Source: a virus
Length of the DNA: 62,877 nt
IMG/VR virus record: IMGVR_UViG_3300046167_000556
Location: 1 to 62,877 of that record
Strand: one strand, 5' to 3'
In this document: positions 9,815 through 62,247 of the stretch, one piece after another
How the letters are laid out: the number at the start of each line of letters is the position of its first letter
Position numbering within the stretch: the stretch's first letter is position 1
Notes under the pieces: generated by a model
What the model saw: the letters and a program-made list of their open reading frames with translations, nothing else
Databases searched by the model: none
Told to the model about the DNA's origin: nothing
Translations under genes and position numbers: made by a program

Positions 9815-12800
9815 TTATTTTTCCTTTAATTGTTTTGCTATTTTATCTAAAAACTTTTTTCTAGCATTCTTGCTTAAATTAGCAACATATATTTGAGTTT
9901 TGTCATCTAAAGATTCATAAGCTTTTTTTCTGTTTACTATTTTTTGCTTAGCGGAATCTACTCTTTTAGCTTTAGCTTTTTCTTTTTGCTTTATTTTTTT
10001 AGTTTCTTTAAGCTGCGCTTTAATTAAATCATCTTCTTCATTTTTAACATTAACATCCCAAGTCCTAAATCCTAAAGACAATGCTAACCTTTGGTATATA
10101 GTATTACGATTATCTAGCATTTCTGCTACACTCTGTATTTCAGCGTACATACGATCCAATGGTATGTTAGCTGCACCAGCAGACAAACTACCTAAAACAG
10201 AATACGAAGGACTTAAATTTAATTTTCCATTAGCAGTTAAATCAAACCCTCGCTCTTTCATTAACTTTTCATTGTATTGATAACCTCTTATAGCTCCATA
10301 TATTTTTTTAAGCTTAGATCCAATTGGAGGCGATAGGTTGGCAACTTGTATTATAGTATAAGTTTGATCACCTGTAAAGCCTTTGTCTTTTTGCTTAAAG
10401 TACTCCATTATAGTGTTTTTAATTTGAGCTACAACAGCTCCCTCTAACACCTGTACCTCTTAAAATAGAATCTATACTACCATTAGTTATTCTTTTTAAC
10501 TTTTCAGCAGTGCTTTTATCTATTTCTTCTTCCTCCTCTTCTTCACCAAATCCAGGTATCAATGCAAATATAGCTGCGGACAAACTGTTGAATATAAGAT
10601 TTTGTATTGCTCCATAGTACATTATTTTACTAAAGTTAGAAAAATCACTTTGCAGCATAGAAGTAGTTCCAGGCATTTGACGTCTTTTAATAATGTCTAA
10701 TGCGCTTCTTTTCATTATTCTTGAATACTGCTGAGTCGTATTTTGAAAAGCTAATACTAATCTACCTAATACACTTGCTTGTTCCATAGATACTAATGAC
10801 GGGTCACTAGATTGCTGAGATTGATCAGACACTTCAATAAAATCTAAAAACGCTTTGTCTTCAGCTTGCTTTTCTGTGTACAGGTTGTTACCTTCAGCAT
10901 CTTTTTGATTTAAGTAAGTATTAATTCTATTTCTGTAAAAAGTAGCTCCACCTGATGCAATTGCAAAACTATCTGCTATTTGCGTAGGTGTAAAACCTTT
11001 TTTAAGTAACCAGCTTAACGCTGCAGTAGCTTTGTTTTTTGAATTTGCTGCTTCGTTTGCAATTTCTGCCTCATTAACATCTGCTCTCAATCCACCTCTA
11101 CGTTGTTTTAATTTGTCAGAATTAAATAATGTAGAAAAATCTTTCCAGTATTGTTTTTGATTTGCAAACGCCGCCGCTGCTTTAACAGGGTTGTTATCAC
11201 TCCAGTTTAAAAAGTTACTAGTTGAAAGTAATTGTAACAATGCTGATCTACGGTTAAAAAACATTATAGATCCTATAGAGTTGTTTAGCCAGTTATTCCA
11301 CTTGTTAACCTGAGCATTTGTTCCAGACGGTCTATTAGTACCGTTTTCCATTCTATACAAAGAATCTTTTAAAGCGGTTACATGTCTTTTACCGTATAAA
11401 GCTTCTATTTTATTTAGGTTTTCATCGCTAAATATTTCATTTACATTTTCAATCCACTCTGCTAAATATGCTTTTCTACCACCTTTTTCAGTTAAGTTAT
11501 TTATATCTGATAATATTGTACCAACATCCCAATGTTCACTAGGTTTTAACCATTCATTACTTTTTGATATTAAAACCAAGGACTCTGCATAGGCTAATAA
11601 TTCAGGATTACCTGCTACATAAGCAACTAAAGTTCCAACTTCTTTTTCATTTAAACCAGGAACAGCATAACCAGCTTTATTCCATAAATAAACCCTAACA
11701 GCTTGATCATTTGTATAATCTTTAGTAGGTATTAAATCACCTATAGTTTTAGCTATATTAGGCATTGCCTTGTTTAAAGCTTTGAAATCGTTTTTAGTTG
11801 TTTGTTTAGCAACATCAATAGCAGCTACACCTTCTGTATAAGGTCTTATTAGGTTTTTATCAAACCAAGCCATATCTTTAGTACCTTGCTTTCCTTTGCC
11901 TGAAAAAGTATAACCAGTAAGTAATCTAAAATCTTCAGCAGATGAAGGTATATAAAATTTATATTTACCTATACCCGCGCCCATTCTTTTAGCTACTATT
12001 TTAGAGTAAGTAACATCAGCAGCGACACCTTTATTTCTTTGAATTATATTGTTAAATTCTTTAGTTAAACTTAATTTGACGCCTGAATCTAAAGCTTGGC
12101 TTTCAAGTTCAGCCCTAGCTTGAGCATTTTTAACAATTACCTCAGGGTCTAAATTTGTTATAACTTTATTAATCGCATCAGCGGATTTTTTATATACATT
12201 AACACCGTCTGCAAAATATATACTGCTTTTATTTTTACTATCTAAAGCTGAAAGTCTTCCTTCTAAGAACGGGTTTGTTTCACCTAAAGCAACATCTTGA
12301 ATATCCGAAACATACTTAGCGTTAATAGTTTGATTAAAATCCAACAAAACTTCACTGTTTAACACATTCAATAAAGTAGATACATTATCAAGCGCTTTAG
12401 GATTATTTTTCAATAAAGAAAGCATGCTTAAAGTATTTTTAGCAAGAGCTATAGTAGCGCCTCCTACAGATTTTTGATGCTCTCCCTTGGGTTGTAAATA
12501 CTTATCTATACTTAAATTTGTATTTGCTCTTTTAGAAAAAAATCTTTGCTTAGTGGTTTTTTTCTTTTGGGTTTTAGATAATTTTTTCCAAGCTTTTTCA
12601 GAAGCTTCTTTTTGCGCCGCAACAGCTTCTTTATACTGTGGATGCTTTGTGTTTAGCTCTAGAGTTTTTAATTTGTTTTGTTTTGTATATCCTTTTCCGT
12701 CTTTATCTAAGTATACTGCTTGACTTCCTTCAAAAAGCTGTATTCCAACAGGAACAGCTAAAGCTTTTAAAGCATTACCAATATTAGTATTAGATTCTAG

Positions 12801-15800
12801 CCATCTTAAATATCCCGGTATTAGAGCTTCGTTTTTAGCTAATATCTTAAAAGCTTTAGAATTTAAGTATTCAAATAAAACTGTATTTGCTTTCCTTGCT
12901 GCTTTTATTTTTTCACTAAATAGTTCTTGAAACTCTTGCGCTTTTTGCTCAGCAGTTCCTTTGCTATTCGCTTGCCAACTTAAAATATCTTTGTAAAGTT
13001 TGTTACTACGTGATACTACAAATATATCGTTTTTAACAGCTTCAACCGCAGCAAAACCAGGATCAACAACTTTTATGTTTAAGGCTTTTTGTATAAACTT
13101 TCTTAAAGGGTTACTAGTATTTATGTACCTGCTGTGAAAACCTAAAAACGTTTTTGAAACACCTGGTATTTTAAATAATCCCGCAGGAACTATTTCTGCT
13201 AATTTTTCAGAAAATGCTGCTAATTCTTGTAACCCCTGTTCACTAGCGGTAGTATGCTCCGCGTATTGATTAAAATATTTTTGATACTCTTTAAAGTTTT
13301 CTATTTCCTTTTTAAACTTAGGGCTTGTAAAAACTGTTCTAACACCAGCTGAAATCTTATTAAAAGGTTTCGACCAGTAGTTATCCCATTCATCTTTTAC
13401 TTCATCAGATGAGTTTTCATACCATTCTATAAAAATCTTCAGAAGATTGATCAAACCTATTATCAACAAGTATGCTCGCGCCTACTAGAATGTCTTTACT
13501 AATTGAAAACTTAATATTACCTCTTTCAATTTGACGAGACATATCTTCTTCAAAGTTTTCTGTAATAACAACACCTAAAGCTTCTTGATTATTTTTTAAT
13601 GCTTCAGAAATAGGTCCATCTGTTTTTAAATCCTGATTAATAATATCAAAAGCAATTTCTTCACCCATAGCTTTAGCTAAAGATTCTTTTCTACCTCTAA
13701 TAGGTTTACCGTCAGGTCCCTATAATAGAACTTAAAAATAATTCGTCCGATATAGCTTGGCTTATATTAGGTACTCTTCTTATTATTTCATTACCTGATG
13801 TTTTACCTTTTGCTTCTGTCGATGTTTTTTCTCTATCTACTTTAGCTCCTTTCCATACGTCGCTATTTACAAAATTAGGAACAAATGTAGCGTCTCCAAA
13901 AGTGTTTATAACTCTTTTACCGTCTTTATCTAATAAATATTTTCCGCCTACAGATTTTTGTATAGCCTCAGGAAATGCTTTAGTTAAATAAAAGGTTGTC
14001 ATATTCTCCAGAATAGCCTTTTTATTAGCTTTAAGATAGTTTTGCAACTCGTTGTTCTTAATACCACCCATTTCTTTTTTAAGTACAATATCGGCTTGTT
14101 TTCCAATGTCCTTTTTTATCTCGGCAATAATTGGAGGTACGCTAACGTTTTTAGTTACGGAAGCATCGAACTTAGATTTTAATACTCTAACAGATGAAAT
14201 AACTTTATCTCTAACAGTTTTTAAACCATCTGTACTTAAAACTTTTTGTTGTACTAAATTTTTATATTTAGGTTTTTCGGAGTAACTGGAGCAGTTGGTT
14301 CGCTGGCTGTAATTCCTTTTGCTTCAGATACGTCAACATCAAAAGCAGAATCTGTTACTTTACCTGTATTTAAAGCACCTTTCATTCTATTGTTTAACTG
14401 AGCCATTAAATAACCGAACAAAGAATCGTTTTGCTTTGGATCAAATTTAGCGATGTAAGGAAGCATGTTAGCTATAGTTTCACTAACCATACTGTTCATA
14501 TCAAACCCAGGGAAGCGAGTTAAGGTTTACAATATTACCTTTTTTAGTTTTAAAAACTAATGATTTAGATTTTATAAGACCTTTTAATATGGTGTATATT
14601 TTAGGATTATTTTTATTAAAACCATCAGGATTGTTACCTATGTCGTCAAGCTCTTTTTTAGATTTAGCTGTTGACTCTTTTAATGCTTGGCTATCCGCTT
14701 TAACCGGTTTTGGCTTAGCTAATGCTTTGGCTTTTTGACTTACTGCGGATTTATCAAATACTACAATGTTTTCGGTGTCTCTACCAGTTATTAAATCTGT
14801 ATCTGTAAATCTAGTTGCTTTAATACCTTTTTCAGCAAGAGCTTCGTTTAGTTTGTTTAAATCCTCTTCAGTAAAAGCATTTTCAAATCTAGCATCTATT
14901 AATTCATATAAACGAGAATCGTCTACTGTCCAACCTTCAATTCTTGGCTGTATATTTAAGTCTCTTATTACTTCAAATACTTGAGCTTCAGTAGCAATTT
15001 CAGCTTCATTTATTTTAAAGCTTTGCACTTTACCGTTGCTGCCTTTAGCATATTCTTCCGCTTGCTTTTTGCTTTCTGAAAAGTAAATATTACCATCTAT
15101 ATCGTTTACGGTTTTAACCGCTCCTCCGTGAAATACTTCAATGTCTTTTTTAGGATCCTTAGCTACTACAGCTGCTTCTGCTTTCTCAGCTCTTTCAATT
15201 TTACTCTCTAAGTTGGCCTTTTGTTGTTCGTAAACATCAAAATCAATTTCACCATCTTCATACTCCGTTTCAAGTTGCTCTAGCTGTTGATTAAACTTAG
15301 TAATACTTAACTTGTCTTTTGTTAATTTTTCATCTTCTTTACTGACAGCGGTTTTAACTATAGGATCTTGTACTGTTTTTCCTCCGAAGTGACTAGCTTT
15401 ATTATAATCTTTTACAAAGTAATATGCACTTTCACCGTCTTTTAACTGGATTGTGCTTGGAAGAAATTTATTTGCAAAAAACCTAATTCTATCGATTGTG
15501 CTTTCTGTTACTTTTTGGCCATCAGCTAATACATCAGACATAGCGTTCATCGCTTCTTCGTAGTAGTCTTTTTGCTTTACAAGCTCTCCTTCAATGTTTT
15601 TATTAGCATAACTTTCGTCAATTCTAAACTTAACTTTAGCATATAGATCAGGTTGATTTTTTTGTAAATACGTTAGTAGACTTTCTCCTGCGGCATCAAT
15701 ATTGTCTTGATTCTTACCAAAGTTTTCTCTAGCGTATTTATGTAAAACTTCATGCGCAAATATTCCTGTTCTCCTATTTTTAATAGAAGATTCCATATTA

Positions 15801-18800
15801 ATTACAATTTGATTACTTCCTGATATTGCTCCTCCTTCGTAAGATCCATTATCTATAGCTTCTCTAAGCGTTGTTTTACTGCCACTTTGTGCAGGCTTGT
15901 CTAATTTCCCTGGGTCACTTTTTTCAAAAAAAGCAATAATATCCTTTTTAGTTTCTGCAACAACAAATTCAACGTTTAAACCTATATCGTCCGCAAACTT
16001 TTGAGCGTTTGTTTGCCCTTTTTGTATTCTTGCTTTATAAGTTTTATTAACGTAATTATTTAAAGCCTTATCGTTTATTTCTTTTGCAGTAGGTTCTTTT
16101 GCTCCTTCTTTTTGTTCTTCTTTTAATAATTCAATAGCTTCATCGACTTCAGCTTGTTTTGCTTCAGGTGATAAGTTAGCAAAATTGTTTGCTACATATT
16201 GAGAGCTTTCTGCAAGCATTTTTGTTTTGTAAAACTCATAACCTTGTGAGCTATCAAAAGAAACCCCTTGAGCTGCCGCGTTTTTTCTAGCAGCTTTTAT
16301 ATCTGTTTCGTTGGTTAAAATCTGCTCTCTTTCTCCAGCTAATTCATTAAACTCTCCTCTTAGTACTTTCTCTATATTTGATAGTTCACTAGCTTTTATA
16401 TTAGGATTAGCGTAAGCATCAATTAATCTTTTATTTAGTCTACGTATTTTTTTATTAACTTCACCTACTTTTTCTAAAGCTTCTGGAGATAGGTCTGTGC
16501 CTATTTTAAATAAAACACCGTCTTCTAAAGCTTCACCTTTTTTTACTAAATCATCTACAGTTTGTTGTGTTTCTGTAGGTAAGTTTAAGTTTTTTAAAGC
16601 AGGGTCAGATGGTCCTTGAATTTCTATATTTGTTAATTTTCTTAATTTAGAAGTTATATTGAATAACTCATCAACTTCTGCTCTATTTGCTAATTCGCTT
16701 ATTACAGCTTGCTTAACACCTTTAAATGCTGTAACGGCTCCAATTCCGCCACCCATTAAAGCTCCTTGAGCAAAACTTTCAAGACCTCCTTCAAAAACAC
16801 TTTTATCTTCATTTAAGAAATATACATCTCCTATGTTTTGAAATAATGTAGTTCCAAATTCAGAGCCTCCTTCAACTCTAAGGCCTTTTTCTAATTGCTT
16901 ACTAACAAACTCAAACCCCTCTTTTACTGTTTGAGGAGGCAGCATTTTAACACCGTCTTTTAATCCTTTTAAAAGTCGCATTGTACCTATTCTTTCGAAA
17001 GCTACTTCAGCTATACCCGCTAAGGCTTGGTTGCTTAGTATTTTCCAATCTTCTATTTTAAGAATGTCTGCGTCTTTATTCATTTGGGTTTCAATAGAAG
17101 CTTGCTCCAATGGATCCATATTTGGATTTTCTTTTAACAGCTTATTATTGTTTACCATTCTTTCAGAAGCTTCTTTTTGCTTAATAGCCATTTCCATCCC
17201 TTTACCACCAGCTCCAGATAAAAAGAATAAAGGCATAGCTACAGGTCCGGTCATAGCCATACCTAAAGAAGGTAGTAAATTGGGTATAGATCCAGCAACC
17301 CATCTGCCCGCATCTTTAACGCTGCTTATTTCATCGACAGTTATTGCTCTTTGAAAGTTTTCCATTTCTTTCTGCATACTGCTACCTAATGAAACTAAGC
17401 TTGTTTGTTCTTCTACTAAAGCAGATATTTTAGCTCCAGCTGCTACTTTCATTAAAGAATAAGGATCTCTAAGAATATTTAACTGAGCCATGCTATACAT
17501 AACATCTGTACCCATTGATTTAGTAGCTGAAACGAGCTGCTCTAGTCTATCGTAATTTCTATTAAAATCGTCAATAGCGTAAGGAATAGCTTTTTCTCTG
17601 TCCGCGACACCAGAGTCCTCTAGTGTTTTTTGAGCTTTTTGCAAATCATTTTGTTGCTTTAAATAAGATGATTGCAATGCAAAGGCTTGTAGGTAGTTTT
17701 CTTTAGATTGAGTCCTACTATAATTATCTAAAGCTACTTCTAATTCTTCTTTTGTGTTAAATAGAGCGGTAGCATTGTCTTTAAAGTTAGATATTTTTTC
17801 TTCGTCCTCAGAAGCTAATGCTAATATAGACGTTCTTTGCTCAGGGCTTAAGTTGCTAACGTACTCAGAAGACTTAGCTAGGGCATAGTTGTTTCTACGT
17901 TCTCTATCGTACAAAGCTATTTCATTGTCGCTAACGTCTTTTACAAAACCATTTTTTTGGTAGTCTTTATATGCTTTAAATTCTTCAGCACTATTAAAGT
18001 CTTCTTTGGTAGCTTGTTTTTTTATTTTTTTACTTCCACTTCCTTTGTAAAACCTTGCCTCTTCAGGTTTCATTAATCCAGACTCACGGTATTCTTTAAA
18101 GGACATAGTCGATGTACTATCGTCTACCTCTTGAAACTTTTTTAGCCTTTCCGCTTTTATGCTAGAATTTAATTCGTCTTTAGTTAAGTCAGGTGCTTGT
18201 ATTTGTTCAGCATAGTTTTCATATGCTACAGATTCCTTTCCGGCAGAAGTACTTAAATAGTCTAAATTACCACTTTGCTTTATGTATTGATTAATTGCTT
18301 TTGCAGAAGCTTGTAAATCTTCTTTACTTTGATTTTTTCCAACTTTAATAGCTTTAAGAAGATCAGCTAAAATACCTAAGTTAGGATCAGCTTTATCTAT
18401 ATTTGACAACGATACTGCATCAATGCTTCCTAAAGCAGTAGCTTGCTCAACAGTTATACCTAGTCTAGAAAGTTTTTTGTTTAAAAAAGGAGCTATGTCC
18501 TCTTCGCTTCCTTTACTTAATTCTTCCGGCGTAACGTAGTATTTGGATTTTGGATCAGGATCTTGTGATTCCGATGAACCATTTTCCAAGTCTAATACCG
18601 TATCGATTGGTGTTGTTTGATTGTTTGGCAGAGCATTTACACCTGCTGCACTGCCTGTTGTATTTCCCGAGTTTTCGGTTATCAACTTTAAATTGTTTTT
18701 TTGTATTAATTCTTCTACAGAAAAACCACTGTCTGCAGCAAGTGTTAATAGTTGTTGTTCAGTTATTACTTTCCCTGTTCCTTCTTGACGGTAATCGCTC

Positions 18801-18802
18801 AT
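9815..18802 (-). CDS. Giant internal virion (ejection) protein with HExxH and ADP-ribosyltransferase-like segments; frame broken five times
   Basis: Six ORFs join into one ~2994-residue protein if single-base errors in short runs are corrected at about 14520 (extra A), 14275 (missing A), 13719 (extra G), 13433 (extra T) and 10441 (extra G; coding strand). Residues 1017-1021 are HEVLH (zinc metallopeptidase motif, IFAHEVLHKYA). Residues ~1223-1350 (VFHGG H1225, IYFSES Y1240, EEYAKG, later ENIVVFDKSA) resemble the ART fold of phage polyvalent proteins. A hydrophobic Gly/Pro stretch lies around residues 490-520, and a poly-Glu stretch near the C-terminus. Last gene of the late operon, as for ejected internal proteins of podoviruses. 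Domain calls are by motif only. Confidence 0.8.
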
Positions 18803-32602: not shown

Positions 32603-35010
32603 TCACCTAGGTTCAAACTGCTCTAGGCCAAATCCACCGAGGTTGTCAAACCCAGCTGATTCAAAATTCTTTGGTAAAGAATCATTTTTTCTTTGATCAA
32701 TTAACTCGCTTTGTTGAGTTGCTTGTATTTTTGTTCTATCGTCTTTACGATCTTCTTTATATTTTTCTTCTTCTCTTTTTACACCAGATTGAGCCTCTGC
32801 TAAACGCATATTGTATTGGAATTCTACCTCCATTAATTGCTTTTTAATCTCAGCCTCTTGTTGTAGCTTTTGAATATCAAATTGAGATTTTGATTGCTCT
32901 ATTTGTATTTTAGTTTGAGCTAAAGCTTGTTGCTTTTGAACTTCTGCCATAGCTGCTGCTTCTGACGCTTGGGCGTTTGCTTGTGCTTGCGCTTGTATAT
33001 TAGCTTGCTGAGCTGCTCTATCTGCTTCTTCTTTTTTCTTTCTTCTAAATTTGATAGACTCGTTAGCTAGTTTAATATTTTTTATTTGTCTAATATCGAT
33101 AGCGTCTTCTAAGTTAATTCCACCAGCTTGTAATGCAACCTGTATGTTTTGTTCTAACTGTTGTTTTTCTTCTTCGTCCGGTTCTAATTCTAAAAATATT
33201 CCAAAGTCGTGAAGGTTTAAATCTACAATTTCTTTTAGTATTTCAGCGTTGTAAACGGAAATACTTGATTCTATCGATTGTCTAGTTAAAGGAAACTCTA
33301 TTACATCAGCTACTTTTAAAGATATGTTTTCACAAGTTTTAAGAGTTAAATACAAACTAGCTTGTAATATATGTCTTGTAGCTACGTTTGATTGATTAGC
33401 AGCTATCTTTTGCAACCCTACTAAAGCGTTTTTATCTGGAGTGCTTCCATCTCTCGCTTCATTTAAACCGGTTACATCTCTAATCATCTGTAAGTAATAC
33501 TGGTACGTATTAATTAAAGACGCTATTTTACCTTGACCTGAAGAAGATGTTAATTGCTGAACTGGTATTTTACCCCTGTTCATATCTCCATCTTGTGTAA
33601 GTGATCTACCTACAACACTACCGGTTTGAAAATACATATTCAAAGCCTCCGCTGGACTATACGACGTTCCATTACCTAAGTCAACTTCTGCTAAACCGTC
33701 CATATCTAAGAATACTCCGTCTGGAACTATCTTAGCCATTACTTGTTGTAACTTTAAATGAGTTAATTGAATCATATCCGCAAAACCCGTAATACGCCCT
33801 ACTAAAGACTCAATTTTACCTTTGTACATTCTAGGTGCACAAATAGAGTAATTCATAGAAACTTTAGTCGTATCAGCAAATGGTCTTGTCATATTTTCAG
33901 CAAGCTCCCATTTAAGCATTTTATTATAACCTAAAACCTTTACGCCTGAATATATAACCTCTATAGTTCTTGATACTTTTTTAAACGTATCATTTTCTGG
34001 CGGGTTAAACTCATCTGTTTTTTCAATAGCTTTTTCTAAACCTTGATCTGTTTTTTTAATTTTAAAAACTTGGTTTTTGTAAGTTTTATATTCAAAGTAT
34101 ACTAAACTTACTTTATTGTCGTCATGGCTACTATATCCCTGTGGTATAATCACGTGAACCTGCCATTTTTTCTATTTCTTTCATTTCCTCATTACCAAGA
34201 TGAGGGAATTCTTTTTTAAGTTCAGCAAGAGTAACTTCTTTTGACTCACCTACGTAGTAAAGATCTCCAAAGTTAGGATCTTCAGTGTATGAATAAACTA
34301 AGTTAGCAGGATCTACATAATCAATAGTTATACCTTCCGCCTTATTAAAATTAGTTTTAGTCGCTGCAATACCTATAGTAGTTAAATCGTAATTTAATCT
34401 ACGCTTTGTTAAAGTATACTTATTAGTATCTAACACGGTATTTATTACTTCCTCTTGAGCTATTTCTATATTTTGCTTATAGTCAAGCTGCATATATAAT
34501 GAAAGTTGATTTTCATTTTCAGGTAACATAGAAGGGTCTTCTACATTATAAGTATCCATACCTAATTGAGACATCATACTTTCGTTGAATTCTCTAGTAT
34601 TCATATCTGCAACAATAGCAGACACGTATTCTGTTCTTTGTCTATTAGATTCAGGATCTTGAGCAAATGCTTTTATATCGTAATTTTTTTGTGATATACC
34701 GTTAACTACTATATCTACAAACTTAGGTATTACGGGTACAGGTTTCCAATCTAAATTCAAGTAAGACAAATCGCCGTTTATAGACAATTCATCTTTATAT
34801 TTTTGAATAGATTGCTCACCTCTAGCGTATAATCTAAGTTGATGAAATCTAGCATAGTTCGACGAAAACCTGTTATTTGAAGATCTAGAACCCTCCGAAC
34901 CATTCGTGCTCTATTGCTCTAGCTACTCTTAACCCATACTCTAAACTAGCTTTTTCTTCATCGCTAACAGTTTGTGTAGGAAACGAGCTATTGTAATTAG
35001 TTTCTATCAT
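32603..35010 (-). CDS. Portal protein (about 801 aa), frame broken near 34138 and 34892
   Basis: Three ORF pieces join from the ATG at 35010 after removing an extra G at 34891-34893 and at 34137-34139 (+ strand CCC). The protein has RDYTTGYSSHDDN across one join, VEDPSMLP, the stem-like NTYQYYLQMIRDVTGLNEAR and a long C-terminal Gln/Ala/Glu coiled coil (barrel-like) around residues 660-780. Size and place after TerL fit a podoviral portal, the dodecameric DNA gate. Family by order, size and coiled-coil end. Confidence 0.8.
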
Positions 35011-37260: not shown

Positions 37261-37513
37261 AACCCTTAAAAGCTTTTTCTTCTTTTTCTTCTTTAGGTTT
37301 TTCGTTTATTTTATCCTCTTCTTCTTGAATTCTTTGTAAAATTTCAAAAGCATCAAATATAGCTAACTTTTTTGTTGCTGCAGCATTTTTTAATCTGTCT
37401 GCAGAAATATCATCATCAGAATCAACAATAGCCTCTTTAGCTACTTTAATCAATTCTTCAACGGCTATTTGACCAGCTAGGATAATATTCTTTTTCGTTT
37501 CCTTTATTTTCAT
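37238..37513 (-). CDS. Small acidic helical protein upstream of TerL; possible small terminase
   Basis: 91 residues, helical: VEELIKVAKEAIVDSDDD and FEILQRIQEEEDKINEKPKE, ending in a charged Lys/Glu tail. Overlaps the TerL start by 23 nt and the preceding gene by 56 nt. Small terminase subunits sit here and are short helical proteins, but I see no DNA-binding motif. Position-based guess. Confidence 0.45.
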   Translation of the reverse strand: MKIKETKKNIILAGQIAVEELIKVAKEAIVDSDDDISADRLKNAAATKKLAIFDAFEILQRIQEEEDKINEKPKEEKEEKAFKGFAERRSK

Positions 37514-38064
37514 ACTTAATTACAATATCATTAGATTTCATACAATATAAACGCTTGTTATCAAAAACAAACTCAAACTCAGACTTAGGCGTAAACCCTA
37601 TTAAGTCCCCTGGGGTTATTTTAAGCGCTTCTAAGGACTTGTTGCTGTATTTTAGTATACCAACAAGCTCTTTTTCTTTTTGATTCTTTAAAACATCTGT
37701 TTCTACAACAGGTGCAACAAAGCAGTAATCCATATTAGTGTACCATTGTTTGTTTTTTTGGTACATATATATTTGATCAGGACTAGCAAAGTACATATTG
37801 TCTTTAAAAAATGTAGAACCGTTTTTTTCTACGCCTCTAACGTCGTACCATCTTCTAAATATGTTGTGATGTACTATTACTTTATCACCTGGTTTTATAT
37901 CTGTTTTTAAGCGCTTTAGGTGTTGCAACAACAACAGCTTCCTTGCTAACAGATCTCCAATCTTCTACTTTTGTATTAGTAATAAGATTTTTATCGCCTA
38001 CCTTTACTTGATTGTTGTATCTATCATTTAAAGGTTTTATAATAAATTGACCTAAGCTATTCAT
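37458..38064 (-). CDS. Possible GroES-fold (gp31-like) co-chaperonin, about 201 aa; frame broken near 37906
   Basis: The ATG at 38064 overlaps the stop of the gene before it; one extra A at 37904-37908 (+ strand T run) splits the frame. Restored, the centre reads IKPGDKVIVHHNIFRRW and the end DNKRLYCMKSNDIVIKYE, like the beta-barrel start and C-terminal strand of GroES/gp31-type co-chaperonins. It has an insert (FFKDNMYFASPDQIYMY) where gp31-like proteins carry extra loops. If right, this phage has two co-chaperonins. Recalled pattern, unverified. Confidence 0.45.
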
Positions 38065-41874: not shown

Positions 41875-42134
41875 TACAATACAACAACTACGTCTTGATT
41901 TTTTATAACGTGTAGCTTTTCGTTTTCTATTTCTATTCCATGTCCAGCATTCCTGTCGAAATAGATTGTATCGTTTTTATCAACACCTACAACTTCTTCA
42001 CCGATCGATACAATAGTAGCTTTGCGGTATCTTATATCCTCTCTACTTTTTTCATTAAGAATCAAACCACCTTTTGTTTTAGTGGTTGACTCTTTAATGA
42101 TTTTTATTATTAAGTTTCTACCTATTGCTTTCAT
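41874..42134 (-). CDS. groES: GroES co-chaperonin
   Basis: 86 residues: MKAIGRNLIIKIIKES, mobile-loop region TKTKGGLIL, DTIYFDRNAGHGIEIENEKL, ending QDVVVVL. This is the GroES beta-barrel with mobile loop that caps GroEL. Overlaps groEL by 17 nt, downstream of it. Its mobile loop has the Gly-Gly-Leu/Ile hinge that contacts GroEL. Confidence 0.85.
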   Translation of the reverse strand: MKAIGRNLIIKIIKESTTKTKGGLILNEKSREDIRYRKATIVSIGEEVVGVDKNDTIYFDRNAGHGIEIENEKLHVIKNQDVVVVL

Positions 42135-43672
42135 CTTCTACTCTTAAGTTATTGATTACACAATCGGTTGATAATATTGTAGTAGCAACTGACGCTGCGT
42201 TTTTTAAAGCACTTTTAGTAACTAATAAAGGATCTATAATACCTTTTTTAATCATACTTACATTTTTACCAGTTACAACATCTATTCCTTTACCTTTGCC
42301 TTGCGGATATACTTCATCCAAACCAGCATTTTTTAATATAGTTAAGTAAGGCGCTTTAATAGCTTCTAGTAACACTTTTTCATTTTCGTTAGATGCTTTT
42401 ACTAGTGTAGCCGCATTTAATAAAGCAATTCCTCCACCTGGTACAATACCTTCTTTTATAGCTGCTTTTGTGGCACACATTGCATCTTCTACTCTATCTT
42501 GTTTTTCTTTAAGCTCAACTTCAGAACTTGCACCTACTTTTATAACTGCTACTTTACAAGAAAGTAAACCTAATCTTTTTTCTAATCTATTTATGTGACC
42601 TGGTAAAACTTCGTTTTCTAGTTCGACCTTGATTTCATTTATTACTTCTTGAACTTCTTTAGATGTATTTTCTACTTGTATAATAGTCTCCTCGCTGTTC
42701 GTAATGGACTTTAAACAAGTTCCAAGCAATTCTACCTCTATCATATCTAAGTCGTCTCCAAGGTCTTCATTTACGACCGTAGCACCTGTTAGCAACGCTA
42801 AGTCTTGAAGCTTCTGCTTTCTATATATTCCGAAATCAGGTGTATCTATGATATTAACCTTAATATTACCTTTCATTTTATTCATAGCTAATGCAGATAC
42901 AACTTGTTCATCTGCTTCACCTATAATTAGTAAAGGTTTGTTGTTTTTTATAACGTATTCTAATACACTTTGTATTTTACGTATGTTTTCTATTTTGTTT
43001 TCAACTAGTAGTACTAACGGGTTTTCAAGTACAGCTTCTTTTTTGCTTTCGTTTGTTATAAAGTGAAAGTTTTTTAAAGGTTTATCAATAGATGCTCCGT
43101 TTATTACTTCGTAGCTTGTATTGCTGTCATTTGATACTTCCATTGTTACAACTCCGTTTTTACCAACTTCCTTAAAAGCTTCGGCAATAACATTACCTAA
43201 ATCTTTATCGTTGTTAGCTGAAATTGTAGCTACATTGTTGATCATATCGCCTTCTACAGGTACCTGCTAACTTTTCTAAGTATTTAATCACTTTCTTAGT
43301 AGCTTGTTCAATACCTTTTTTCATTTCTCGCGATCCGCTGTTATTTGTAGCGTACGCCTTTGAAAGAATTGAGTGTGCTAAGACTGTAGCTGTTGTTGTT
43401 CCATCTCCAGCTTCTTTAACAGTTTGCCTAGCAGCTTCTTTTAGAAGTGTTGCACCCATATTTTCAATAGGATCTCTCAGTGTTATTGAATTTGCTACAG
43501 TTACACCATCTTTAGTAATAACTGGTTTACCAAACTCGTTTTCTAGCATAACACACTTTCCGCTTGCTCCTAATGTAGAACTTACAGCTTTCGTTAGTTT
43601 GTCAATGCCCTTAAACACATTATTTTTTGCCTCATCGCCGAAGCTGAGGTTTTTTACAATTGCGTTACTCAT
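42118..43672 (-). CDS. groEL: GroEL chaperonin (about 517 aa), frame broken near 43263
   Basis: Two ORFs (43672-43214 and 43245-42118) join to 517 residues on removing one G (+ strand CC at 43263-43264); the bridge becomes LEKLAVPVEGDMINNVAT. Equatorial motif GDGTTT (89-94), apical domain with NIIDTPDFGIYRKQKLQDLA, and VEDAMCATKAAIKEGIVPGG before the C-terminal equatorial part. No GGM tail. Phage GroEL with GroES folds large virion proteins; here beside fibre and capsid genes. A broken chaperonin would be useless, so the break is an indel error. Confidence 0.87.
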
Positions 43673-43748: not shown

Positions 43749-46700
43749 CTATTGCTTCAAGCTTTCTATTTCTTTTTCTAATTCGTTTATTTTGGTAATT
43801 AACTCTTTTATAGCCGCGGTATTGATAGCGATTATATTATTGTACTCCACGCTAAGAGGATTTTCTATACCATGAATTTTATTTTTATTTTGTAGTATAG
43901 CTGTTGGTATAACTTCTTTAACTTCCTGAGCCAAGAAGCCGTACTTATCCTCCAATTTAACACTTAAATCCTTTCTGCTTGATAAATTTGATTTCCAATC
44001 ATACTTAACTGGAGCCAGCTGATTTACTATATTAATTGGGTCTTCAATTTCTTTTATATTTTCTTTAAGTCTTTTGTCTGAAAAACTGCTAGCCGCTAAG
44101 ACGCTTGTTGTGTAAGAAGATGTATCCCCGGCTACCTGTATATCTCCCCAAAATTCTGCTACATTTGTTCCTGCTGTAACATCCCCAATCGCGGCATAAC
44201 CATCATTACTTCTAACTTGTAAACCGTTTTCGGCTAATACAACTCGTTTATTAGTTCCTGAGTTTTCTCTAAATACAACTGGTTGCAGACCACTATTTTC
44301 ACGCACACTAGCATAGGCTGTAACTGTTTTAGGTCCAGTATACGATGAACTTTGTATAGTTTTTACAGTAAGGTTTTTCCACTCGTGCTTTAGCTTAAAC
44401 TGTGTAACTTTTATCTCACTGTTTATTTCTAGGTCATTAAGTGTCCCTCCTATTTGGTCCGCAGGGCCCGCAAACGTACTACCAGCAATATCATCGTAGT
44501 AAAAATTCCATGGCCCACATCCGTTTGGTTCCCCGGTGTTTTCGTTGTATGTACCACCGTAATCAACCGATATGCCACCATAACGCGAAAGCGTATTTCC
44601 AACATCTCTTTGGACATTTCTATCAGCTAGTACTTGTTTAACTTCTTTTTCAGATGTAGAACCATCTTCATTGGTGATTGTAAATGTTATTTCAGCAGTT
44701 AGTTTGTAGTCGTAAGAAACAGGTGCACTAACCCAAACGTCAGGATGCTCAGGTTCGCACGTTTGTGGATTAGTGTACCCCAGTCGATAGCCACTCGCGA
44801 CCAGGTCTAAAGGTATATCTAAACCCAACCCCCCTCTTTTTTCTGGTATAAAGCCTGTAAATTTAAATACTATAGAGCTTCCAGTTGCAGTATAAGTGGT
44901 ATTATCCTCTACACTGGCATTCGCGTATTCTACAATATCACTAAATACAATATTACCGCTGCTATTAATAGTGCTAGCAGTAGCCATACCTCCTTGATTT
45001 CCCGTAAAATTCGTATCTACATAACTGACCGGAGTTATAGACGGCAAGTTTGTAGCGGCTATAGTAATTTCGCCATAGCCAGTAGACGGGAAGCGACCGG
45101 TGGGGTCTAATACTATAGAAGGGTTACTATGTCCTGATTTTAAAGCGTTATTTGTTACAACCCAATTACCTAATTTACCAGCTTCATGTATACCGTTAAA
45201 CTTAGCAGTGCCATCCGCGTTTATAAAAAACTTCTCAGCATGTATAGATCCGTTGTCTAGGTTTACAGCCATACCTTTGTCTGAGAAACCTTCGGTAGGA
45301 GTGGTAGTATGCTGATAATTCTTACTAGATATGATACCTGTTTTAATATTGCCACCGTTTATTTCCGTGCTACCGCTTTCTTCTAAAGCGCTGAATGTTA
45401 CAACTTGGTTAAAAGCAAAAGATCTTACAGGGGGTTGAAAAACAACTCTACCAACTCCACTGTTATCCGCTATTAGCAACGGGTTGTAAATATCTACTTC
45501 ATCACCTTCTAATAAAGTTAATGTTATTTGCGGGTTGTTTCCATCATTCACGTTAACACCTGTTAAGGAGTATTTAACGAAAGTGTTTGTTAATGTAACC
45601 TCTAAGTTTTCGTAAGGAGTGTAGTCAGAACCATGCTCTTGCAGTCTTAATCTAAGTCTACCACTACCTCTTGCCCAAACCGAAACAGTACCTGAATCTT
45701 TCCAGTAAGTAGCGCTGCTTGCTTGGACTCCGTGTGTCGCAATATACGGATCTTGAGCAGCTATTGTTCTACTTATTGTATAAACCCCAGGTTCCCCTGA
45801 AGCATAGCTAACTGATGCTCCATTGCCTCTGTACCAGTCTATAGGGTCTGATAGATGATGCACCTCATTTTCTGTTACATAATAGCTAGATGACCAGTAT
45901 TGATTTGAAGCGGTACCAGCTGCCATTTCGGGAGTTTCTGTACCCCAGTACGAAGGTAAATTAATAAACGACCCTTCGTTAAAATCGAAAGCATAACTAG
46001 AGCTAGATAATTGGGTTGGAGCTGTCGCTTTACCTGATTGATAAAAAACCACTCCTTTAGCAGTTCTTCCACCGTTTGCTCCATCAAGCCCAGGTAAACC
46101 ATTTGTACCCTCTGCTCCTCTTTGGTAATATATAGCCGGAGTTGACCACTCGCCTTTACTCCATGTGTTAGTCAATAGATCTCCGTTTGAATCAAATGTT
46201 TTTGTATTATAATACCTAACACTTGATACCCATTCCGTATCATCTACACTTGCAGTTGGATCATCTGTCCACCCTGCGGGTATTGTTTCTGTCGTTCCAT
46301 TGTATGAACCAGTTTCCGGAGCCTCCGGTTGAGTGTCTGAGACTTTATATATAAAACTTACATATGCTCCATCCGTACCGTCAATACCATCAGCCCCTGA
46401 AGGCCCTTTCGGCCCATCTGCACCTGCTATAGATTTTGAAATACTATATTCGGCAGTTAATATAACATCGGACGCAGCATTAGCTGTGGCTGCTGGAATA
46501 GTGGCTTTAAATACGGCAAATCCATTATTAGCTTGCAAATCAGATATTGTATATACGCCTGAAGAATCTATAGATGCTGTGATTTCGTTTTGAGAATCAA
46601 CTTCAAAAGCACAACTTGTTGTTACGTCTGCATTGCCAACAAATACTTTAAAAGTACCTCCTGAGCCTGTATAACTTGAAACAGTCCCATCTGCGGCTGC

Positions 46701-49700
46701 TGATACAACGTGAGCTGCGTTTGTCAAAAATGCTGTTGGAGCATCACTTCCATCTTGAACTCCATATATAGTAACTTCATCTGTTGCCACAAGTGTACCA
46801 TCATCATATAGCTCTACTTCTACAACAACACTGTCCCCGCTCGCTGGTTCACTTGCATCAAGCAATGTAAAAGTTGAAGTTGATGACGCAGCATCTCCCT
46901 GAGCCTCATCATTAATATAATATCTATATGTAGCCGTGCCCTCAACGTTTTGACCTACGGCATTAAATATTATCGTATCTGTTTCGGCTCCAGCGGTAGA
47001 GTAATTTATAACGTGTTTAGATGGGTTTAACTTGACCACTTTAGCATCTGCTCCGTTTGTACCGGCTTTTGATTTAGATATACTATAAGTTTGTGTTAGT
47101 ATTACATCCTCATCTGTATTAGCGAGGCTATTTGGTACCGTAGCTTGGAATATTGCAGTACCGCTGTCGGCTGTCATTTGTGAAATAATATAAACACCCT
47201 TAGGAGTGTCATTATCACTATTATTGTCTATTGTAACACCAACACCATTTTCTTCAATTTTGGCAAATTCACATTGCGAAGTTATATCGGTAGTTCCTAG
47301 AAGTACCTTAAATGCACCTCCTGCTTCAGAATACTCTCCAGTTACATTTCCATCACTATCTGCCGAGATAGTATGTGTTGCATTGGTTAAAAAACTAGTT
47401 AAAGCACTTTCTCCTAGTATTTTTTTCCACGTGTAATCACTAAAAGTAGTAGAATCAGCTTCTGTACTATCAACATAAGTACCAATATAATCACCTACAT
47501 CTTCACCATCAGGAAGAGTAAAATTTGCACCATCATTAGAGTATTTTATATGTAAATAACTAGAAACTCCAGGGTCACCGTTATCATAATCAACTCCTTT
47601 TTCTGGAACAAACTTAGTAGCAGGTCCATATACAAAATCTCCTTCTCCATTAGTTTGTACACCGGTTCTTATATAGTAATAAGTTTCACCTGCTGCTTGA
47701 GTAGTAACCCATGTGCCCCCATCTATAGAATATTCTACTATAACATTGTTACCAGCAATTCCGTCATCATAATCCCTTCCTTTTACAGGGCTATAACCAT
47801 CTTTGACACCGTATATAGATATAGAATCTTCAGCTACTAAAGTATCATCATCATATAGTTTTACTTTAACAACAACATTTTCTCCACTAGATGGTTCATC
47901 CTCTTCTGGTAGCGTAAATGTTGATAAAAGACCTAGCTCTTGCTTTTTATTATCACCAACATAAAATTCATACCCTGCTGTACCTTCTATATTTTGAGGA
48001 GTAGTAGTAAATGTTATAGCGTCAGTTTCTACATCAATTAATTTATCGTCTACCTCATCATATACAGTGGAATAACTTATAAAGTGTTTTGAAGGACTTA
48101 GTTTAACTGTCTTTGCATTTGCTCCTGGTATTCCTTGAGGTCCTTGAATATTTCCAGCATTAACCCAAGCCGACCCATCCCATACGTACAAATTCCCATC
48201 TACTAAGTATCCATCTCCATTTGTAACCCCAGATGTTGGTAAGTCATTGACTGTGTCTACAGAGCCTATTATATTAACAGAAGTTCCATCTGTACCTGCT
48301 ATTTTATCAAAAGTAATACCCGAAACGCTGTCACCGTCTGTCCATTCTCCATTATAAAAAGCTATATGAGTAAGCGTTCCTTTCGTAGTTGACGCGTTTG
48401 TTCCAACTGTATCTTCTGCATATATAACAGTGGTTGTAAAACTAGCTGGTACATCAGACAAGTCGCCAAATGTTATTGTACCAATAGCCCCTTGTTTTAT
48501 TTTCACGACTCCATCTACAACTTCAAATGGTGCTGTACTGCTGCTATCGTTATATATTTTAAAGCTATCTGCTAAAAAGCTAACCTCTGATCCTTCGTTG
48601 TTGGCTAATAGTTTCATACCGGCAACATTGCCATTGGCATCAACTTGTAACCCATACGTGCTCTCTAAAGCGCCATCTACCCTGGCTACTACGTTCGCTG
48701 TTTCTTTTACGGCAGCATAAATACCTAAAAACTCTAATTCCGTATCATCCGCTAAATTTTCAGCTAGCGATAGTGTTATATTATTTCCATCAACAACGGA
48801 CACAAAAGTACCAGGTGTTATACCAGCTCCTTTAATCTGAAACCCCTCACGTATTGTTCCTGAAACATTATCTACCGTTATAGATGTGTTACCTGTAAAC
48901 GATACTGTTGTCTCGTTTTCTAAATATATTTCATTATCTAAAAATATGTTTTCTTGCTCTATAGCCTCAACACGCCATCTAAGATCCCTGTTTATTGTGG
49001 AATCTTGAGCAGAGTACGTGACATATTGCCCAACTTCAATATCAGAATTAGCAGCAGTGAGCACAAGTTGTTTTGTTCCTGAAACAGCTCCATCCAATGT
49101 TGCAGTGACAGGAGCGCCAGCGCTTCCGTTAACAAGAGCTGTTGCTTGAGATTGTGGCGTACCGTCTAATTTATCAATACCAACCGCAGCACTCAAGTTA
49201 TTTACATATCCTGCTGTAGCAGAATTTGCATCAACCTCGTTATTAACAGCTGTTTTAAAGTCCGCGGATAAAGATGTATTAAAATTATTATCACTATCAA
49301 AAGCACCAAGCTCAGCACCAAGATTTGAAACCTTAGAAGCAGTCGCGGAATCAGTATCGACTGTTGTTATTACAGTATCTAAATAATCAGATGATCCGCT
49401 TATTGAAAAATTATTGTTGGTATCAAACGACCCAAACTTAGCGGACATAGACGTAATTTTGCTTGCAGTAGCGCCTATTCTGCTATCGTCTGTTAGTGTC
49501 CAAATGCGAACACCAACGTTGCTAGGATCTTCGTCTACTATATATACTTTATTATTGTCATTTGTATCATACCATATTGAAGCATCCGGAATAACTTGCT
49601 CGGATGTACTATCGGAATAAATAGAAGGAGTATCATCCTGTCTATAAACATTGGGCTTAGTGCTTACTATAGCACCAAGTTCTGTTAATTTTTGAGCATC

Positions 49701-50759
49701 AGCATAATTTGTTGCTGATTCCCTTTCCATGACACTATTAGCGAAAGATTCACTAAGGTTAGTTATATTACCTTCAGCGTCATATTCCCCAAAACTACCC
49801 GCTAAGTTTGTAGCAAAAGTAGAATTATTACCAATGTCAGTCGTATGCGTTTGTAATGTCTGTGTAGCAGTCGCACTAGAATCCACCAATGACCCAATAC
49901 GAGAATCATCGGTTTCTTGCCATTCCTTCGGAGGCCCCTCTACTAACATGTATAATTTATTCCCCTCTGATGTATTATACCACAATGATCCAGCAGGCTC
50001 GTCAGTGGCAGGTATATCATTTTGCCTAAATATATTTGGTTTAGTAGAAACAGTTGAAGAGAGATTTGTTACGCTTTGCGATGTAGCGTAGTCAGTTGTG
50101 TTTTCTGTAGACATTACGCTATTTGCAAATGACTCAGACAATAACCCTGTTTCAGTATCAAAAATCCGTGAGGTAAGATTTGTTACATCAGACGTTCTTG
50201 CTAAGTTTTCTGTGTTTGAAGTGCTAAGTACATTATTAGCAAATGACTCAGAAAGAGATACTAAGTTACCGTTTTCGTCAAACGTACCTAATTCGCTTTG
50301 CAGTATGGTAAAAGATTCAGCGCTTGCCAAATCAGCTGTAGATTCGCTCATTAAACCTTGCACAGCTACTGTATCAGAATATGAAGCCAGCCTTCCGTTT
50401 ACATAGCTTTGGTAATCTGTTTGTACCTGCATCTCTATCCGACTAATAGCTCCGTTTAAATTAGCTTGTGTTTCAATTTTTAATTCGGCTAAGCCGGAAG
50501 ATATAGTATCTACGGATCCTGCGGTCGCATATCCCCCTATAGTTAAAACGTTATCTTCAATACTCATATAATCCTGAAGTTCTGAAACGAAGTCTATAGC
50601 AGATGGGTTATTACCTAATTGAATAAAGCCAGATACATAGTCCGCTACCTGACCTATCGATACAGAAAGAGTACGTTGCTCTTCTGTGGAATCTGATAAA
50701 AGCAACACATCATCTCCAGTTAAGTTTTCTACTCTAGGATAACTGTATATTGTAGCCAT
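43749..50759 (-). CDS. Tail fibre (2336 aa) with C-terminal S74 intramolecular chaperone
   Basis: N-terminus MATIYSYPRVENLTGDDVLL is shared with the 430-residue protein upstream, so it is probably the virion anchor. The first ~500 residues contain repeats (NLSESFANSVM, FGSFD/LGAFDSDNNF). Then collagen-like runs (GPQGIPGANAK, GADGPKGPSGADGIDGTD, GTNGLPGLDGANGG) alternate with repeated modules starting VKLNPSKH. A Trp/Gly-rich beta region (about 1590-1720) looks carbohydrate-binding. Residues ~2225-2336 are a peptidase S74 chaperone (FSDKRLKENIKEIEDP ... KYGFLAQEVKEVIPTAI) that cleaves itself after trimer folding. Intact over 7 kb. Confidence 0.9.
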   Translation of the reverse strand: MATIYSYPRVENLTGDDVLLLSDSTEEQRTLSVSIGQVADYVSGFIQLGNNPSAIDFVSELQDYMSIEDNVLTIGGYATAGSVDTISSGLAELKIETQANLNGAISRIEMQVQTDYQSYVNGRLASYSDTVAVQGLMSESTADLASAESFTILQSELGTFDENGNLVSLSESFANNVLSTSNTENLARTSDVTNLTSRIFDTETGLLSESFANSVMSTENTTDYATSQSVTNLSSTVSTKPNIFRQNDIPATDEPAGSLWYNTSEGNKLYMLVEGPPKEWQETDDSRIGSLVDSSATATQTLQTHTTDIGNNSTFATNLAGSFGEYDAEGNITNLSESFANSVMERESATNYADAQKLTELGAIVSTKPNVYRQDDTPSIYSDSTSEQVIPDASIWYDTNDNNKVYIVDEDPSNVGVRIWTLTDDSRIGATASKITSMSAKFGSFDTNNNFSISGSSDYLDTVITTVDTDSATASKVSNLGAELGAFDSDNNFNTSLSADFKTAVNNEVDANSATAGYVNNLSAAVGIDKLDGTPQSQATALVNGSAGAPVTATLDGAVSGTKQLVLTAANSDIEVGQYVTYSAQDSTINRDLRWRVEAIEQENIFLDNEIYLENETTVSFTGNTSITVDNVSGTIREGFQIKGAGITPGTFVSVVDGNNITLSLAENLADDTELEFLGIYAAVKETANVVARVDGALESTYGLQVDANGNVAGMKLLANNEGSEVSFLADSFKIYNDSSSTAPFEVVDGVVKIKQGAIGTITFGDLSDVPASFTTTVIYAEDTVGTNASTTKGTLTHIAFYNGEWTDGDSVSGITFDKIAGTDGTSVNIIGSVDTVNDLPTSGVTNGDGYLVDGNLYVWDGSAWVNAGNIQGPQGIPGANAKTVKLSPSKHFISYSTVYDEVDDKLIDVETDAITFTTTPQNIEGTAGYEFYVGDNKKQELGLLSTFTLPEEDEPSSGENVVVKVKLYDDDTLVAEDSISIYGVKDGYSPVKGRDYDDGIAGNNVIVEYSIDGGTWVTTQAAGETYYYIRTGVQTNGEGDFVYGPATKFVPEKGVDYDNGDPGVSSYLHIKYSNDGANFTLPDGEDVGDYIGTYVDSTEADSTTFSDYTWKKILGESALTSFLTNATHTISADSDGNVTGEYSEAGGAFKVLLGTTDITSQCEFAKIEENGVGVTIDNNSDNDTPKGVYIISQMTADSGTAIFQATVPNSLANTDEDVILTQTYSISKSKAGTNGADAKVVKLNPSKHVINYSTAGAETDTIIFNAVGQNVEGTATYRYYINDEAQGDAASSTSTFTLLDASEPASGDSVVVEVELYDDGTLVATDEVTIYGVQDGSDAPTAFLTNAAHVVSAAADGTVSSYTGSGGTFKVFVGNADVTTSCAFEVDSQNEITASIDSSGVYTISDLQANNGFAVFKATIPAATANAASDVILTAEYSISKSIAGADGPKGPSGADGIDGTDGAYVSFIYKVSDTQPEAPETGSYNGTTETIPAGWTDDPTASVDDTEWVSSVRYYNTKTFDSNGDLLTNTWSKGEWSTPAIYYQRGAEGTNGLPGLDGANGGRTAKGVVFYQSGKATAPTQLSSSSYAFDFNEGSFINLPSYWGTETPEMAAGTASNQYWSSSYYVTENEVHHLSDPIDWYRGNGASVSYASGEPGVYTISRTIAAQDPYIATHGVQASSATYWKDSGTVSVWARGSGRLRLRLQEHGSDYTPYENLEVTLTNTFVKYSLTGVNVNDGNNPQITLTLLEGDEVDIYNPLLIADNSGVGRVVFQPPVRSFAFNQVVTFSALEESGSTEINGGNIKTGIISSKNYQHTTTPTEGFSDKGMAVNLDNGSIHAEKFFINADGTAKFNGIHEAGKLGNWVVTNNALKSGHSNPSIVLDPTGRFPSTGYGEITIAATNLPSITPVSYVDTNFTGNQGGMATASTINSSGNIVFSDIVEYANASVEDNTTYTATGSSIVFKFTGFIPEKRGGLGLDIPLDLVASGYRLGYTNPQTCEPEHPDVWVSAPVSYDYKLTAEITFTITNEDGSTSEKEVKQVLADRNVQRDVGNTLSRYGGISVDYGGTYNENTGEPNGCGPWNFYYDDIAGSTFAGPADQIGGTLNDLEINSEIKVTQFKLKHEWKNLTVKTIQSSSYTGPKTVTAYASVRENSGLQPVVFRENSGTNKRVVLAENGLQVRSNDGYAAIGDVTAGTNVAEFWGDIQVAGDTSSYTTSVLAASSFSDKRLKENIKEIEDPINIVNQLAPVKYDWKSNLSSRKDLSVKLEDKYGFLAQEVKEVIPTAILQNKNKIHGIENPLSVEYNNIIAINTAAIKELITKINELEKEIESLKQ

Positions 50760-61392: not shown

Positions 61393-61499
61393 CACAAGAA
61401 TTCAACGAATGGATGGCGAAGATAGGTAATATACACTATGCTAATGACAATTTAATGGCAAAAGCATTTAATAGGATAGAAGAACATGAAAAAATATAA
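61389..61499 (+). CDS. Micro-protein (36 aa)
   Basis: MTQEFNEWMAKIGNIHYAND: helical, Trp/Phe-rich. Overlaps the HTH gene stop and the sigma gene start, so it is in the same message. Confidence 0.5.
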   Translation: MTQEFNEWMAKIGNIHYANDNLMAKAFNRIEEHEKI

Positions 61500-62247
61500 C
61501 ATACAAAACTATGTAAGATACAAAGCTGATGTTAAACAATCTATTGCTCGGCTTGAAGGTAAATTTTGGGACGAGTATACTAAAGAAGAACTAATTATAA
61601 AGTTTTTACCTTTAACAGAGAACATAGCTAGAAAGTTTTCAACTTCTGATCAAGCATCAGGAGTTTTAAGTATTAATGACTTAATACAAGAAGGTTCTAT
61701 AGGTTTAGTTAAAGCTATAGGTAAACTAGATATGAACAGAGTAATTGAATCTAACGATCCTGAGAAGACATTAAAATCATTCTTAGCTAAACGTATTAAA
61801 GGATCAATTAGACGCGCTATAGACATTAATAGAGGTAATATTCGTATACCCGAGTACAAGTTAAATGAGATAAGAAAAGACTTTGGTAAAGATAAAGCTT
61901 TAGTAGCTATGTTTTTTAATAGTATATTTTTGAGTATTGATATACCAGCTAATGAAGATGACGATAACTTTGCGTTTCAAATACCAGATGAATCTGAACC
62001 TTATAATATAGCGTTGATGAATGTTTACTTAACTAGCTTATGTAAAAAGTATTTAAGCGATAATGAATATGAAGTACTAAGGCTTAGCTATGGGCTTGAC
62101 TGCGAAAAACTACCAGGCAAAGAAATAGCTGAGGTATTAAATATGACTGGCCCTAGTGGTTATGTAAGAGTTTCAGAGCTTAAAAAGCAAGCTGTGAATA
62201 AATTAATCGACTCTGTTGACCACACGCAAGTGCTTGACTTCCTTTAG
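61486..62247 (+). CDS. Sigma-70 family RNA polymerase sigma factor (253 aa)
   Basis: Region 2: FLPLTENIARKFSTSDQASG, INDLIQEGSIGLVKAIGKLD and FLAKRIKGSIRRAIDINRGN-IRIP. Region 4: YLSDNEYEVLRLSYGLDCEK followed by GKEIAEVLN and YVRVSELKKQAV. It redirects host RNA polymerase. The C-terminal region 4 would read the -35-like TTTACA box of the 12 early promoters; this is an inference. No anti-sigma gene seen. Confidence 0.85.
   Translation: MKKYNIQNYVRYKADVKQSIARLEGKFWDEYTKEELIIKFLPLTENIARKFSTSDQASGVLSINDLIQEGSIGLVKAIGKLDMNRVIESNDPEKTLKSFLAKRIKGSIRRAIDINRGNIRIPEYKLNEIRKDFGKDKALVAMFFNSIFLSIDIPANEDDDNFAFQIPDESEPYNIALMNVYLTSLCKKYLSDNEYEVLRLSYGLDCEKLPGKEIAEVLNMTGPSGYVRVSELKKQAVNKLIDSVDHTQVLDFL

What the first reader, a model, noticed from the sequence alone, without database searches (positions are those of the whole stretch)
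9815..18802. ~2994-residue ejected giant with HExxH and ADP-ribosyltransferase-like segments
After repair, one virion protein has HEVLH at residues 1017-1021 and an ART-like segment around 1223-1350 (H1225, Y1240). Ejected effectors of this type could modify host targets at infection, as the polyvalent proteins of other phages are thought to do.
Basis: inference. Interest (0 to 1): 0.7.

Follow-up and report, generated by a model that had tools for sequence, protein, structure and literature searches.

The report
Phage-ejected giant with protease core
A marine bacterial virus probably carries in its particle a roughly 3,000-residue protein that combines a zinc-protease-like domain, a probable ADP-ribosyl-transferring domain and a segment resembling the part of bacterial sigma factors that grips RNA polymerase; this fits the known idea of multi-tool proteins injected at infection, but the sigma-like part appears to be new.

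Summary
The giant gene on the minus strand (18802 down to about 9815) is real. HEVLH sits at residues 1017-1021 and an ART-like segment at 1219-1350, both inside one uninterrupted 1,433-residue frame, so neither depends on 'repair'. Downstream the gene is split by five frame changes; relatives are open there, and portal and GroEL are split too in this record, so indel errors are likely.

Peptidase: strong. 84 of 85 relatives of 2,200 residues or more carry HExxH (0.46 expected in total by shuffling). Across 53 aligned domains the only invariant residues are H, E, H and a downstream E (window E1083); the model is confident (pLDDT mostly 90-97). Gluzincin-like, not a metzincin.

ART: moderate. 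Pfam ART-PolyVal matches (E 8e-4, below the curated cut-off); only two close relatives share it; the fold model is poor.

Virion: supported by homology. Residues ~496-736 match phi40:1 gp101 (E 7e-27), found in virions by MS/MS.

Beyond the finding, the next domain resembles sigma-70 region 2 in profile, structure and hhalign tests, and the phage also encodes its own sigma factor.

Verdict: polyvalent-protein type, a new marine variant with a possible ejected sigma-like module.

The parts
9815..18802 (-). gene of the giant virion protein; frame 1 open for 1433 aa (18802-14501), then five frame changes down to its stop
   Evidence: relatives uninterrupted
16595..17317 (-). virion module, residues about 496-736, shared with cultured flavophage virion proteins
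   Evidence: profile matches phi40:1 gp101 (i-E 7e-27, MS/MS virion protein), elemo giant (5e-27), Gundel_74 (9e-20), phi19:3 gp129 (3e-12), Panino CDS0069 (7e-11)
15368..16015 (-). zincin-like metallopeptidase domain, residues about 930-1145
   Evidence: 53-member alignment with invariant H, E, H, E; model pLDDT mostly 90-97 for residues 930-1100; profile finds 70 of 90 giants
15740..15754 (-). HEVLH, residues 1017-1021
15554..15556 (-). E1083, probable third zinc ligand
   Evidence: invariant in 53 sequences; lies near the start of a later helix in the model
14753..15148 (-). ART-PolyVal-like segment, residues 1219-1350 (H1225, Y1240)
   Evidence: PF18760, E 8e-4, 20.6 bits, cut-off 31.2; E 3.6e-5 per genome
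14287..14662 (-). sigma-70 region 2-like domain; in the window it spans a frame change
   Evidence: mostly on the L004 and other relatives' copies
10004..12071 (-). conserved C-terminal region of the family (split by one frame change)

Best explanation
This is a polyvalent-type virion protein of a marine flavophage-like podovirus. An N-terminal virion module and a conserved C-terminal region (shown by homology) frame a changeable central payload. The payload begins with a zincin-like metallopeptidase (conservation of the catalytic residues shown; activity inferred). In this lineage an ART-PolyVal-like domain follows (weakly shown), then a sigma-region-2-like domain (fold similarity moderately shown; function inferred). 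The protein is packaged and most likely ejected with the DNA (inferred). The peptidase most likely cuts the polypeptide in cis to free modules, the ART modifies a host protein, and the sigma-like part engages host RNA polymerase during takeover (all inferred).
For: HExxH in 84 of 85 large relatives, 0.46 expected; only H, E, H and E1083 invariant in 53 domains; confident model with the motif in one helix and E1083 in a later one. ART-PolyVal match at the stated place. Virion module homologous to MS/MS-detected phi40:1 gp101. Payload is modular: the ART is in 3 of 90 giants, L107 matches the window closely after the ART boundary but has a different upstream module, other members carry Zeta_toxin/AAA_33 kinase, HAD-like and LPD14 segments. 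RPP1's virion RNA polymerase, a prototype polyvalent protein, also combines ART-PolyVal and a metallopeptidase.
Against: No peptidase family in Pfam matches, MPTase-PolyVal PF18818 included. Foldseek of the peptidase-ART model gave no zincin or ART. The ART match is below the curated cut-off and its model is poor. Virion location is by homology of one module, not measured for this protein. Sigma similarity is not significant in any single test.
Confidence: 0.7

Rival explanations
1. The giant is mainly a structural or ejectosome protein, and the HExxH domain serves only virion maturation, cutting itself or its neighbours before packaging; the ART-like segment is inactive.
For: Last gene of the virion module; phage P1 DdrB is cut before packaging (PMC5512222); the ART is rare in the family and its third catalytic residue is unclear.
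Against: The payload varies widely between relatives and includes other enzyme-like modules, which fits effectors better than fixed structural parts; N4 virion RNA polymerase carries an HExxH domain (PMC12633501) and is packaged uncut (PMC5512222).
Confidence: 0.17
2. The HExxH and ART-like segments are chance motifs in a large protein without enzymatic function.
For: Few significant Pfam matches; poor ART model.
Against: 84 of 85 large relatives keep HExxH, and the four zincin residues are the only invariant ones.
Confidence: 0.05
3. The gene is a decaying pseudogene in this phage, so the domains are relics.
For: Five frame changes in one gene.
Against: Portal and GroEL are split too; protein-level similarity to relatives continues through every piece; relatives are open.
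Confidence: 0.07

Closest known systems
Polyvalent proteins (Iyer et al. 2017, PMC5512222)
   Same: Large multidomain phage protein joining a zincin with HExxH and a later glutamate to an ART and other unrelated domains, predicted to enter with the DNA
   Different: Peptidase not matched by PF18818; ART below cut-off; a sigma-like domain is not mentioned in that paper
Virion RNA polymerase of Roseovarius Plymouth podovirus 1 (CBX87992) and N4 gp50
   Same: Giant of 3,500 residues or more at the end of the virion module; RPP1 has ART-PolyVal and a metallopeptidase, N4 has an HExxH domain
   Different: No RNA polymerase domain was detected here; a sigma-like domain stands in its place; the order of peptidase and ART is reversed relative to RPP1
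Cellulophaga phage phi40:1 gp101
   Same: Same place in the virion gene order and a homologous module of about 200 residues
   Different: Shorter (about 1,690 aa), no HExxH, no C-terminal region of this family detected
Flavobacterium phage elemo giant (QLF85284) and Tenacibaculum phage Gundel_74
   Same: elemo: virion module and peptidase profile match; Gundel_74: virion module and C-terminal region match and HExxH present
   Different: No sigma-like domain and no match to this ART detected
T4 Alt
   Same: Packaged and injected ADP-ribosyltransferase acting on host proteins (from PMC5512222)
   Different: Different ART clade (R-S-E) and a different kind of protein; no homology claimed

Membership tests
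Polyvalent proteins | Several domains of unrelated activity in one phage polypeptide | tested here: met
   Peptidase, ART-like and sigma-like in one protein; kinase, HAD-like and LPD14 in relatives
Polyvalent proteins | Packaged in the virion and injected | tested here: inconclusive
   Module homologous to an MS/MS virion protein; injection not testable here
Zincin-like metallopeptidase | HExxH plus a later conserved glutamate, the two in separate helices | tested here: met
Zincin-like metallopeptidase | Zincin fold by structure comparison | tested here: inconclusive
   Confident local model, but Foldseek on the two-domain construct was uninformative
MPTase-PolyVal (PF18818) | Match to the Pfam model | tested here: not met
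   0 of 21 records at E 1
Metzincins | HExxHxxGxxH/D signature | tested here: not met
   Window reads HEVLHKYAREN; invariant residues are HExxH and a glutamate 62 residues further on
ART-PolyVal (PF18760) | Match to the Pfam model over its cut-off | tested here: not met
   20.6 bits against 31.2, although E is 8e-4 over most of the model
ART-PolyVal (PF18760) | H-Y-D catalytic triad | tested here: inconclusive
   H1225 and Y1240 conserved in three sequences; third residue ambiguous
ART-PolyVal (PF18760) | NAD-dependent ADP-ribosylation | not testable with these tools
   Needs an assay
Sigma-70 region 2 | Profile and fold similarity to region 2 | tested here: inconclusive
   Top hits are sigma factors and hhalign is above decoys, but no single hit is significant and Pfam is silent
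Sigma-70 region 2 | Binding to RNA polymerase core | not testable with these tools
   Needs a binding assay

The most novel reading that the evidence does not exclude
The ejected giants of an abundant, mostly uncultured marine flavophage group carry a sigma-region-2-like module that enters the cell with the DNA and docks on host RNA polymerase before any phage gene is expressed, with the peptidase releasing it and, in this lineage, an ART helping to modify the host machinery: a virion-delivered sigma-like hijack without a phage RNA polymerase.
Probability: 0.3. Interest if true: 0.8.

Novelty: new variant of a known kind. Interest (0 to 1): 0.55.

Why it matters
This is therefore a widespread and apparently undescribed class of probably injected multi-enzyme proteins in marine phages. 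It offers a near-invariant peptidase core to test, cultured proxies (elemo, Gundel, phi40:1), and a checkable idea of how such phages might capture host transcription at entry.

Tried and rejected
Single-sequence Pfam and PHROG scans of the large pieces found no peptidase or ART; the ART match appeared only when the segment was scanned alone. Foldseek of the peptidase-ART construct against PDB was noise. PDB profile searches with the ART and peptidase alignments gave unrelated chains; the C-terminal region likewise. ART relatives beyond L003 and L004 were not found in viral contigs or phages. hhalign of the ART against the RPP1 prototype was weak, as was the sigma-like profile against the phage's own single sigma sequence. 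A pseudogene was set aside because portal and GroEL are split too. The metzincin reading was rejected. A PDB search with the kinase-HAD region of L095 gave nothing.

Full report
Where it is. The window is a 62,877-base virus record of a phage whose terminase is 65% identical to MW202828 and 31-44% identical to flavobacterial phages elemo, Panino, phi40:1, phi19:3 and Gundel. The gene in question is the last of the virion module on the minus strand. The rest is read in other frames. Portal and GroEL are split in the same record, L004 (86% identical) is open for 2,788 residues and still open at the contig end, and distant relatives have single frames of about 2,200-3,600 residues. I therefore treat the breaks as probable indel errors.

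Family. A C-terminal region of about 520 residues is 42-49% identical between otherwise dissimilar giants. tblastn found none in the phage records.

Peptidase. Of 85 family members with at least 2,200 residues, 84 have HExxH and 83 have exactly one; shuffling predicts 0.46 in total. Many are related, so they are not independent, but the giants fall into 24 groups by aligned coverage. In 53 aligned domains only four columns are invariant: the H, E and H of HExxH and a glutamate 62 residues after the second histidine, E1083. The AlphaFold model of residues 930-1100 is mostly at pLDDT 90-97, with the motif in one helix and E1083 near the start of a later one. This matches the published description of polyvalent-protein zincins (PMC5512222). 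No Pfam peptidase model matches, and Foldseek on the composite model was uninformative, so the fold is inferred from residues and secondary structure. Twenty of the 90 giants are not reached by the profile, although nearly all of those also carry HExxH.

ART. Scanned alone, residues 1198-1375 match PF18760 ART-PolyVal at E 8e-4, 20.6 bits against a cut-off of 31.2, over profile positions 15-127 of 140. Per genome the E-value is 3.6e-5, with similar matches in L003 and L004 and none in the giants of the other relatives searched. Only these three of 90 giants carry the segment. In L107, sequence after the ART boundary is mostly 82-97% identical to the window down to about 13430, but the upstream module differs and has no ART, so the ART looks like an exchangeable insert. 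H1225 and Y1240 are conserved in the three; the third catalytic residue is not clear. The model there is poor. I could not see whether the Pfam alignment pairs H1225 with the model's histidine.

Virion. A profile of residues about 496-736 matches phi40:1 gp101 (i-E 7e-27), the elemo giant (5e-27), Gundel_74 (9e-20), phi19:3 gp129 (3e-12) and Panino CDS0069 (7e-11). gp101 is annotated as structural on the basis of MS/MS. The peptidase profile also finds the elemo giant (E 9e-12) and MW202828 (1.4e-5), and the C-terminal profile finds Gundel_74 (8e-10).

Sigma-like domain. After the peptidase (after the ART here), 49 of 90 giants have a domain (i-E below 0.01) with a motif like sigma-70 region 2. 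PDB profile searches return sigma factors first (E 0.02 and 0.011). The model of the L004 copy has its core near pLDDT 90, and all 50 listed Foldseek hits appear to be sigma factors, with the SigE N-terminal domain at TM 0.70 on the target, although the best E-value is 0.25. hhalign to cellular sigma region 2 scores 17.3 in full register, against at most 7.9 for unrelated family profiles and at most 3.4 for reversed or shuffled ones. No single test is significant by itself, and Pfam is silent. The phage separately encodes a true sigma factor at 61486-62247, so sigma-based transcription control is part of its biology. No phage RNA polymerase was recognised among the proteins scanned, but not every gene was scanned.

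Mechanism. Shown: conserved catalytic-type residues, homology to a virion protein, a modular payload. Inferred: packaging of this very protein, ejection, self-cleavage, ADP-ribosylation, RNA polymerase binding. The nearest described systems are polyvalent proteins and the N4-type giants, where RPP1 combines ART-PolyVal with a metallopeptidase and N4 has an HExxH domain (PMC12633501). The type is known; this peptidase clade, the C-terminal region and the sigma-like module are what differ. My literature searches were few and limited to open papers, so novelty of the sigma-like module is provisional.

Noticed in passing
L095 aa 2412-2745; HAD-like motif also in L112, L116, L120 and others: Relatives carry a Zeta_toxin/AAA_33-type kinase (L095) followed by a HAD-like phosphatase motif (FDFDDTL...TARP...FADD) just before the C-terminal region, an order recalling polynucleotide kinase-phosphatase repair enzymes. 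Not present in L004; not seen in the window.
   Followed up: partly
L113 near aa 2219: The HAD-like domain seems interrupted by an inserted ART-like sequence (YYHGTSA...); by eye only, not matched by PF18760.
   Followed up: no
window 61486-62247 (+): A phage-encoded sigma factor with Sigma70_r2 over its cut-off and a weak region 4 match.
   Followed up: yes
window 32603-34787 and 42118-43672 (-): Portal and GroEL genes are each split between two frames, suggesting indel errors across the record.
   Followed up: yes
window 37458-37934 and 42118-43672 (-): The phage encodes GroES- and GroEL-like chaperonins.
   Followed up: no
L102 741-12320 (-): The MW202828 giant (3,859 aa) has two separate HExxH motifs, at frame residues 1621 and 2506.
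   Followed up: no
window 43749-50759 (-): A 2,336-residue protein with tail-fibre matches at its C-terminus.
   Followed up: no
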